From Planctomycetota bacterium (GTDB lineage: Bacteria; Planctomycetota; SZUA-567): a stretch of DNA of 37,360 bases. Positions 30,575-33,876 of the stretch are shown one piece after another. How positions within the stretch are numbered: position 1 is the first letter of the stretch; every line of letters begins with the position of its first letter. Where the stretch lies: positions 1 to 37,360 of the forward strand of contig JAISXA010000035.1 of NCBI GenBank assembly GCA_031270685.1, read 5' to 3'. Made by a program: the position numbers and the translations under genes. Below the pieces are notes generated by a model. It did no database searches and was not told the origin of the DNA. It saw nothing but the letters and a program-made list of their open reading frames with translations.

Positions 30575-31042
30575 CTTCTCCTCCTTCACGGCAACGACAA
30601 AAAAATGCCCAATGTCTTCAATCAAACCCGTTATCGAACCCCATTTTTCCCCTTTGTCCGATAATGGGGGAATGGCGAATCTATCGCCAACATATATTCA
30701 TTCGTTTATTTCACCGGAATGCCCCCATCTTGTCAAGGAAAAAATGACTTTCCCCCGATTTATGGTCGGGAACAATCCCCTGATAATATCGGCTGCGCGG
30801 AAAACGGCGGCCGCATCAAACAACCCGGTTGCGGAACAATTGCACGTTTCATATATCACACTTAAGTCTATATGGCTAAAGGCGCCGTCTCCCGGGCGGG
30901 CAAATTGATTAAACCATCCCGCCGCCGGACATGGTCGACATTATATAATATTTCCCGAATTCGCGAAAATATTTCAAAAAAACCCGCCTTCAACCGGAAG
31001 CGGAGAAAAAGCCGCTTTTCGGCGGTTTGGACGATAGTTGAC

Positions 31043-31086
31043 TTTTGGAGAAAATCAAACAAACCGCCGTTTGATTTTCTCCAAAG
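31043..31086 (-). repeat. Hairpin repeat, 18-8-18 type, reverse orientation
   Basis: TTTTGGAGAAAATCAAAC (31043-31060) pairs at 17 of 18 positions with 31069-31086 around AAACCGCC, the reverse complement of the family loop. The preceding ATAGTTGAC is the family end motif. With the hairpin at 31185 it may form one two-hairpin element with a 98-nt spacer. Confidence 0.85.
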
Positions 31087-31184
31087 TTTCTTGGGTTTCC
31101 ATTTTACGTCGGGAATTATTGCAACGTCGGCGGCATCGCCCGACAGGACGAAAAATCAACCCATTGGCTCATAAGCAGTAACAT

Positions 31185-31228
31185 CTTTGGAGGAAATCGG
31201 GCGGTGGTTGGCCCGATTTCCTCCAAAA
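31185..31228 (+). repeat. Hairpin repeat, 18-8-18 type
   Basis: CTTTGGAGGAAATCGGGC (31185-31202) pairs at 17 of 18 positions with 31211-31228 around GGTGGTTG, followed by the end motif GTCCAC. The 59 bases 31176-31234, including the preceding CAGTAACATC, are nearly identical to 33798-33855. Confidence 0.85.
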
Positions 31229-31328
31229 GTCCACCGATAGCGAGTCGCCAACCGCTATCGTAAGCATACCCTCCGGCTTCTTCTTAAGCAAGCAAATTCG
31301 GCGCCGATCGTCGCCGCCGCGTTCGCGC

Positions 31329-31357
31329 TTGCATTCGCACCGCGTCTGCCTTATAGT
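31329..31357 (+). promoter_or_regulatory. Possible promoter for the flavodiiron operon
   Basis: TTGCAT (31329-31334) and TATAGT (31352-31357) are 17 bases apart. The -10 box overlaps the ATAGTGGAC end motif of the element that follows, so the promoter may be partly supplied by the element. Confidence 0.5.
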
Positions 31358-31608
31358 GGACTTTTGGTTGCGGCCGAGCAATGCCGTGTCGCGGGGAAGG
31401 AAGGAGTAATCCTGACGGGAACGTGACGATGCTGTCCAGCGGGTGCGAAACCCGTCCGGCGAAGACAAAGCCCTGTCAGCCGGTAGCCAGCCTTGCGTTC
31501 GCGACAGCAATGCGGCGGACGATGCGTAGGCGGGCGAATACGCGGGCCGGGGGTGGTCCGGCATCGAAAACACTTACTCCCGGGCGCCCAAGGGTTCAAA
31601 AGTCCACT
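31355..31608 (+). ncRNA. Candidate structured leader RNA or structured element upstream of the flavodiiron gene
   Basis: The outermost 12 bases pair perfectly (AGTGGACTTTTG at 31355-31366 with 31597-31608). Inside are several local stems: AGGA-GTAA-TCCT (31402-31413); CGGGT-GCGAA-ACCCG (31440-31454); CCGGC/GCCGG (31456-31460 with 31479-31483) enclosing GACA/TGTC; GCGTA/TACGC (31524-31528 with 31539-31543); and GCCGG/CCGGC (31546-31550 with 31558-31562). CGATGC (31520) can close the last two with GCATCG (31561), in competition with the outer pairs of each. GGAGTAA (31403) can alternatively pair with TTACTCC (31574). The ribosome site GGAAGGAGG lies just after the end. No Rfam class could be assigned by eye. 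If transcription starts near 31364 as the -10 box predicts, part of the outer stem is not in the RNA, so the ends may instead be DNA-level features of a mobile element. Confidence 0.5.
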
Positions 31609-31627
31609 TGGAAGGAGGCGCATAAAA

Positions 31628-32839
31628 ATGCGCACATCGTTATGCGGGAACATCGACTGGGTAGGGGCGATAGATTGGAATGTACGCGATTTTCATTCCT
31701 ACGTCACCGATCGCGGCGCCACCTATAATTCGTATTTGATCCGGGACAGGGAGAATGCGGTCATCGACCCGGTGAAGGGACCGTTTTTTAAACGTTGGCT
31801 GGAAAACATCGGGAAGTTCGTCGATCCCGACTCGATTCGCAGCCTGATAATCAATCATGCCGAGCTTGATCACTCCTCCGCGCTGCCGATGGCGGTGAAG
31901 GCGTTCCCGAAGGCGGAACTCGTCACCAACAAGAAGTGCCGCGATACGCTGGTCAGCTATTTCGGCGGCGAGGAATGGAATTGGCGGCTGGTAAAGACGG
32001 GGGACGAGATCTCTCTCGGCTCGCGCACCCTGCGCTTTATCGAAACGCCCATGGTCCACTGGCCCGACTCCATGTTCACCTACGTACCGGAGGACGGGCT
32101 GCTGTTCTCTATGGACGCCTTCGGCCAGCATTTCGCATCCTCGGCGCGGTTCGACGACGAAGTGGATTTCGACATCGTCATGGAGGAGGCGAAGACCTAT
32201 TACGCCAACATCGTCATACCCTACGGGAACTTCGTCCGGAAGGCCATGGCCGCCGCGGCCGGACTCGACGTCAGGATGATCGCCCCCTCGCACGGCCTGG
32301 TCTGGCGCTCGCACGCCGCTGAAATTCTCGCCGCCTACCGGGAGTGGATGGTCAACAGGAACCGGCGCAAGGTCATCGTCTTTTACGATTCCATGTGGGA
32401 CAGCACCGCGCTAATCGGCGAGGCGATCCTCGACGGCGCGACCGTACCCGGGGTCGAGACCGACCTGATCCACGTCAGGCATGCGAACCTGACCAAAATA
32501 GCGACCTCCTTCATGGACGCGGCCGCGTTCGCGTTCGGATCGGCGACCCTGAACGGGCTGCTTATGCCGACCGCGGCGGCGGCGCTCGTCTACATGGAGG
32601 GCATGCGCGTCCCCAACAAGGCCGCCTTCGCCTTCGGATCTTACGGCTGGGCCGCGAAGGGCGGTCCGGACCAGGTCGAGGAATACCTGAGGCGCGGCAA
32701 ATACGAGATAATCCGCCCGCCGCTGAAATGCCCCTACCGCCCGACGCCGGAGTTGCTGGCGGAGGCGAGACAGGCGGGCGGCGAACTTGCGGGGAAGGCG
32801 CTCGAGGCGGCGGAATATAAGCCGGAACATGGACATTGA
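31628..32839 (+). CDS. Flavodiiron protein (FprA-type A flavoprotein)
   Basis: A 403-residue cytoplasmic enzyme that reduces oxygen to water or nitric oxide to nitrous oxide, protecting anaerobes. The N-terminal metallo-beta-lactamase-like half carries the diiron ligands: NHAELDH (His77, Glu79, Asp81 and adjacent His82), His144 in MVHWPDS, Asp163 in FSMDAFGQH and His222 in APSHG. The C-terminal flavodoxin half (from about 245) begins VIVFYDSMWDST, the FMN phosphate loop. There is no fused rubredoxin or reductase domain, so a separate electron donor is needed; none is encoded here. ATG at 31628 has a strong GGAAGGAGG site. It is preceded by the candidate structured leader and overlaps the glycosyltransferase start by one base. 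Confidence 0.96.
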   Translation: MRTSLCGNIDWVGAIDWNVRDFHSYVTDRGATYNSYLIRDRENAVIDPVKGPFFKRWLENIGKFVDPDSIRSLIINHAELDHSSALPMAVKAFPKAELVTNKKCRDTLVSYFGGEEWNWRLVKTGDEISLGSRTLRFIETPMVHWPDSMFTYVPEDGLLFSMDAFGQHFASSARFDDEVDFDIVMEEAKTYYANIVIPYGNFVRKAMAAAAGLDVRMIAPSHGLVWRSHAAEILAAYREWMVNRNRRKVIVFYDSMWDSTALIGEAILDGATVPGVETDLIHVRHANLTKIATSFMDAAAFAFGSATLNGLLMPTAAAALVYMEGMRVPNKAAFAFGSYGWAAKGGPDQVEEYLRRGKYEIIRPPLKCPYRPTPELLAEARQAGGELAGKALEAAEYKPEHGH

Positions 32840-33767: not shown

Positions 33768-33796
33768 TTGACATTTTCGCCGCCTTTTGTTATTAA
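33768..33796 (+). promoter_or_regulatory. Possible distal promoter upstream of the chemotaxis receptor gene
   Basis: A consensus TTGACA (33768-33773) is followed after 17 bases by TATTAA (33791-33796), a weaker -10 match. A transcript from here would carry the hairpin at 33807 in its leader. Confidence 0.4.
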
Positions 33797-33806
33797 ACAG
33801 TAACAT

Positions 33807-33849
33807 CTTTGGAGGAAATCGGGCGGCGGTTGGCCCGATTTCTCCAAAA
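33807..33849 (+). repeat. Hairpin repeat, one base short of 18-8-18
   Basis: CTTTGGAGGAAATCGGGC (33807-33824), loop GGCGGTTG (33825-33832) and arm 33833-33849, followed by the end motif GTCCAC. The enclosing 58 bases (33798-33855) match 31176-31234 except for one substitution and one missing base. No T-run follows. Confidence 0.85.
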
Positions 33850-33876
33850 GTCCACTCAAAAGGCCACTCCAAATGA

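What the first reader, a model, noticed from the sequence alone, without database searches (positions are those of the whole stretch)
31355..31608. Large multi-hairpin leader before the flavodiiron gene shares its ends with the repeat family
A 254-base region closed by a 12-bp terminal inverted repeat contains five or more local stems and an alternative long-range pairing (GGAGTAA with TTACTCC). It ends directly before the ribosome site of an oxygen/NO-detoxifying enzyme. This could be a new riboswitch-like leader. Its end motif AGTGGACTTTTG also occurs at the ends of the small hairpin elements, so it could equally be a mobile structured element such as a HEARO/omega-RNA-like unit without its nuclease.
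Basis: partly seen in the sequence, partly recalled or inferred. Interest (0 to 1): 0.7.

Follow-up and report, generated by a model that had tools for sequence, protein, structure and literature searches.

The report
Group II intron fragment in MITE ends
The structured 254-base stretch before the flavodiiron gene is the broken-off front part of a group II intron (a self-splicing mobile RNA), enclosed by the end motif of a very common small repeat, so it is genomic debris of a known kind and not a new riboswitch.

Summary
Window 31355-31608 consists of two 12-bp ends (AGTGGACTTTTG / CAAAAGTCCACT) around about 230 nt. That interior matches Rfam RF02005, group II intron D1-D4, at 55.9 bits (cut-off 49). 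It aligns with the first ~230 nt (domain I and the start of the next domain) of introns elsewhere that carry a reverse transcriptase/maturase and domains V/VI. Six homologues share a structure in which 91% of cells pair (at most 41% when the pairing is slid) and 16 pairs have compensatory changes. The window copy has no reverse transcriptase, domain V or domain VI, so it should not splice in cis or move. The ends belong to an abundant ~198-bp palindromic MITE: 180 exact copies of the 12-mer against 1 for the control. Other copies of this intron's 5' end also start right after ACTTTTG, in two repeat families. This points to an intron that inserted into MITE ends and then lost its 3' part by deletion. 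No second copy of the 254-bp unit was found. None of the flavodiiron homologues examined in relatives has the motif upstream. This is ordinary genome decay; the intron's apparent taste for MITE ends is the only mildly interesting point.

The parts
31355..31366 (+). Left end motif AGTGGACTTTTG; the end of a ~198-bp MITE, here read as the 5' flank (exon side) of the intron
   Evidence: the same motif precedes the intron 5' end in other copies
31367..31596 (+). First ~230 nt of a group II intron: 5' end GTTGCGGCC, domain I, start of the next domain; last homologous bases CCCAAGGGTTC
   Evidence: RF02005 hit 31447-31652, 55.9 bits; alignment with complete introns L036, L041 and others
31403..31409 (+).
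   Evidence: complementary segments at similar places in L036 and L041, weak support
31574..31580 (+). TTACTCC, 3' arm of the same pairing
31597..31608 (+). Right end motif CAAAAGTCCACT (MITE end)
31036..31235 (.). Complete neighbouring copy of the MITE: 198 bp between GTTGACTTTTG and CAAAAGTCCAC, a hairpin at each end, 5-bp target duplication CGATA
31610..31618 (+). Ribosome-binding site GGAAGGAGG of the flavodiiron gene
   Evidence: sequence
31628..32839 (+). Flavodiiron-type protein gene (ODP beta-lactamase plus flavodoxin)

Best explanation
The element is a dead 5' fragment of a group II intron. Inferred history: a group II intron of the RF02005 type inserted into a MITE (or a MITE-like end) directly after ACTTTTG, upstream of the flavodiiron gene; a later deletion removed the rest of the intron (remaining domains, reverse transcriptase ORF, domains V and VI) and most of the MITE, leaving the right end CAAAAGTCCACT. 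Shown: homology of 31367-31596 to intron domain I, absence of the rest here, the identity of the ends with an abundant MITE, and the repeated junction ACTTTTG|GTTGCG in the genome. Inferred: the order of events, and that the fragment has no function of its own. If transcribed it is a folded 5' leader, but it should not splice in cis because domains V and VI and the 3' splice site are missing.
For: RF02005 above its gathering score at 31447-31652. Copies of the same RNA type above gathering in L041 (117 bits), L036 (114.7), L038, L034, L039. L041 carries a reverse transcriptase (group_II_RT_mat, below NCBI's cut-off) and L036 an ORF whose nearest solved relatives are group II intron maturases; both have domain V/VI-like sequence after the ORF. 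The same-genus genome G001 has the same domain I followed by a reverse transcriptase remnant and a domain V/VI-like end. Conserved structure with compensation: 91.2% of cells paired, 16 pairs changed on both sides, 0 of 500 shuffles as high, at most 40.6% paired when slid. All five strong matches to the GTTGCG 5' end in the genome follow ACTTTTG, three after GTGGACTTTTG or GTGTACTTTTG and two after AACTGAACTTTTG, the end of another palindromic repeat. L096 joins this 5' end to a domain V/VI-like 3' end. No other place in the genome matches query positions beyond 214, so the right junction is unique to the window, as a local deletion predicts.
Against: The 5' end reads GTTGCG, not the canonical GTGYG, though GTGTG and GTGCG occur in relatives. 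The 254-bp unit has no target duplication, but most complete MITE copies lack a clear one too. No intron 3' end joined directly to the GAGAAAATC arm of the same MITE was found. The assembly is a draft in 283 contigs at about 89% completeness.
Confidence: 0.88

Rival explanations
1. A MITE captured the 5' part of a group II intron and the 254-bp composite now moves as a unit by the MITE's own ends.
For: Both ends are intact 12-bp MITE ends, and several loci share the left end plus the intron 5' part.
Against: No other locus holds the right part, query positions 215-254. No target duplication. The left junction also occurs with a different repeat end, AACTGAACTTTTG, which fits repeated intron insertion better.
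Confidence: 0.08
2. A functional structured leader (riboswitch-like or an exapted intron domain) that controls the flavodiiron gene.
For: It lies directly before the ribosome site and is predicted to fold.
Against: The structure is that of group II domain I. Upstream regions of the flavodiiron homologues read in relatives carry no end motif, and the same-genus one has no recognisable copy of the element. Other copies in the genome lie in unrelated places. No sigma-70-like promoter was found nearby.
Confidence: 0.04
3. HEARO/omega-RNA-like unit that lost its nuclease.
For: Structured RNA of roughly the right size bounded by repeats.
Against: No HEARO match at E up to 1 while group II scores E 8e-15; homologues carry a reverse transcriptase, not an HNH or RuvC nuclease.
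Confidence: 0.005

Closest known systems
Bacterial group II introns, Rfam RF02005 group-II-D1D4-6 (clan CL00102)
   Same: Sequence and secondary structure of domain I; homologous introns elsewhere have a reverse transcriptase/maturase and domains V/VI
   Different: This copy keeps only the first ~230 nt; 5' end GTTGCG in place of GTGYG
[quoted passage not shown]
   Same: Truncated, next to repeats, outside a coding region
   Different: Nothing essential
Group II introns in palindromic repeats (Pseudomonas putida KT2440: 2 of 9 copies in REP sequences, table in PMC1525189)
   Same: Intron associated with a small palindromic repeat
   Different: Here every strong match to this 5' end follows the same ACTTTTG motif at repeat ends
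MITEs (small non-autonomous inverted-repeat elements)
   Same: Ends of the element are the ends of a ~198-bp inverted-repeat element with 5-bp target duplications in several copies
   Different: The interior of the 254-bp element is intron sequence, and it has no target duplication

Membership tests
Group II intron (RF02005 type) | Domain I sequence and structure | tested here: met
Group II intron (RF02005 type) | 5' end GUGYG | tested here: not met
   GTTGCG in the window and in its close copies; GTGTG or GTGCG in relatives
Group II intron (RF02005 type) | Domains V and VI with 3' end AY | tested here: not met
   No RF00029 match in the window; present in the own genome and in relatives. The window copy is therefore filed as a truncated remnant, not as an intact intron
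Group II intron (RF02005 type) | Intron-encoded reverse transcriptase/maturase | tested here: not met
   None in the window element; present in L041 and L036 and as a remnant in G001
MITE | Terminal inverted repeats shared by many dispersed copies | tested here: met
   12-mer 180 copies against 1 control; ~198-bp copies
MITE | Target site duplication | tested here: not met
   Flanks TTATA and TTGGA of the 254-bp unit differ; some 198-bp copies do have one
HEARO / omega-RNA | Match to the RNA model | tested here: not met
Riboswitch | Conserved aptamer upstream of homologous genes | tested here: not met

The most novel reading that the evidence does not exclude
The intron domain I has been taken over as a folded leader that tunes translation or stability of the flavodiiron mRNA, or still works in trans with a separate 3' half of the intron (no trans-splicing group II intron was known in bacteria according to PMC4424553).
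Probability: 0.03. Interest if true: 0.6.

Novelty: new member of a known kind. Interest (0 to 1): 0.12.

Why it matters
It removes a false lead for a new riboswitch and shows how a broken ribozyme inside repeat ends can look like a designed leader. The side result, an intron lineage whose 5' ends sit after ACTTTTG in the ends of two palindromic repeat families, would be a small new example of retroelement target choice if confirmed in complete genomes.

Tried and rejected
Thermodynamic folding alone was not decisive. Rfam microRNA-like hits at 31036-31236 are below gathering and come from the MITE hairpins. A first pair count used a structure string that I had shifted by one column; it is discarded and replaced. 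A search for intron 3' ends joined to the GAGAAAATC arm of the MITE gave only two poor matches. The junction census was biased because its pattern included CTTTTG and its control count was as high (8), with the intron part only and a control of 0, is used instead. An EBS1-IBS1 pairing (CGGGGGU in the domain I loop with ACUUUUG, four wobbles) was considered but did not carry over to relatives, so it is not claimed. The Pfam search for reverse transcriptases in the own genome gave only a truncated one and a second beside a different gene, so complete introns are probably lost at contig ends.

Full report
The finding concerns 31355-31608, directly upstream of a flavodiiron-type gene. The described features are present: an exact 12-bp inverted repeat at the two ends, several local stems and the GGAGTAA/TTACTCC complementarity, and a ribosome site one base after the element. 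The protein downstream matches ODP beta-lactamase and flavodoxin.

The RNA is a known class. Scanning the whole window against Rfam gives one match above its gathering score: RF02005, group II intron D1-D4-6, 31447-31652, 55.9 bits. The good part of that alignment is domain I, up to about 31590; the last part runs into the gene and is poor. A pattern from the core found the same RNA in other bacteria. Five of those and related loci score above gathering, up to 117 bits. L041 (a Proteobacteria MAG) and L036 (a Thermoanaerobaculaceae MAG) have a reverse transcriptase ORF after it and a domain V/VI-like sequence after the ORF; the nearest solved relatives of the L036 protein are group II intron maturases. 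The genome of the same genus (G001; its contig C66 has the same length, 13645, as JAIRTL010000032.1, a Planctomycetota MAG) has the same domain I followed by a reverse transcriptase remnant and a domain V/VI-like end. The window sequence aligns with these introns from the 5' end to CCCAAGGGTTC.

Structure. On six homologues RNAalifold gives 49 pairs, 16 with changes on both sides. Counted independently, 91.2% of cells pair, no shuffle of 500 reaches this, and slid versions reach at most 40.6%. The structure was predicted from the same alignment, so the slid control is generous to it; the match to the independent Rfam model is the stronger argument.

The ends. AGTGGACTTTTG occurs 180 times exactly in this 3.18-Mb genome against 1 for the reversed control. 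It ends a ~198-bp element with a hairpin at each end, of which 31036-31235 is a complete copy with the target duplication CGATA; several other copies also show 5-bp duplications.

How the two came together. A search with the intron part alone finds five strong copies of the 5' end (at most one mismatch) and no control match. All five follow ACTTTTG: three after GTGGACTTTTG or GTGTACTTTTG and two after AACTGAACTTTTG, which elsewhere ends a different palindromic repeat. A further copy (L096) follows AGTCTTG, keeps only 14 nt of the 5' end, and is joined to a domain V/VI-like 3' end beside such a repeat. Repeated insertion of the intron at this motif explains this better than one capture event. 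No other locus covers the right part of the window element, so its right junction looks like a private deletion. Many other pieces of this and of a second intron type are scattered in the genome, which fits the published picture that most bacterial group II introns are truncated and lie among other mobile DNA (PMC4424553). Association with palindromic repeats has a precedent in P. putida (PMC1525189).

The gene. Flavodiiron homologues were found in all 15 relatives searched. Upstream sequence was read for 13 of them (for one, L079, no usable upstream region); none has the end motif within the stretch read. In the same-genus homologue L073 the -10-like TACAAT is followed by GGAGGATACG and the start codon, while the window has TATAGT, then the element, then GGAAGGAGG; this looks like an uninterrupted site, by eye only. 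No sigma-70-like promoter passed the scan around the element, so whether it is transcribed as a leader is not known.

Verdict: a truncated group II intron remnant bounded by MITE ends, ordinary in kind. Shown: class, homology, missing parts, repeat ends. Inferred: insertion into the MITE, later deletion, lack of function.

Noticed in passing
window 31036-31235 and 33783-33868: A ~198-bp palindromic MITE with 5-bp target duplications, very abundant in this genome (180 exact copies of its end motif), and a single-hairpin relative
   Followed up: partly
L016 (G000:C3:5273-8863): A reverse transcriptase next to a formylglycine-generating-enzyme-like protein with a variable-looking C-terminus; could be a diversity-generating retroelement
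   Followed up: no
L029:284-385 (G000:C17): A group II intron 3' end is followed at once by the 5' end of another intron type (GTGTGACCAGG), a tandem arrangement
   Followed up: no
L096 (G000:C267): Intron copy reduced to 14 nt of its 5' end plus domains V/VI, beside a second palindromic repeat
   Followed up: partly
L018, L019, L020 (G000:C45, C75, C76): A second group II intron type (5' GTGCGAAAGCGCCGG; 151-158 bits to RF02005), two copies running into a reverse transcriptase at contig ends
   Followed up: partly
L073 (G001:C114): The flavodiiron frame of the same-genus genome is reported with one TAA inside the matched stretch
   Followed up: no
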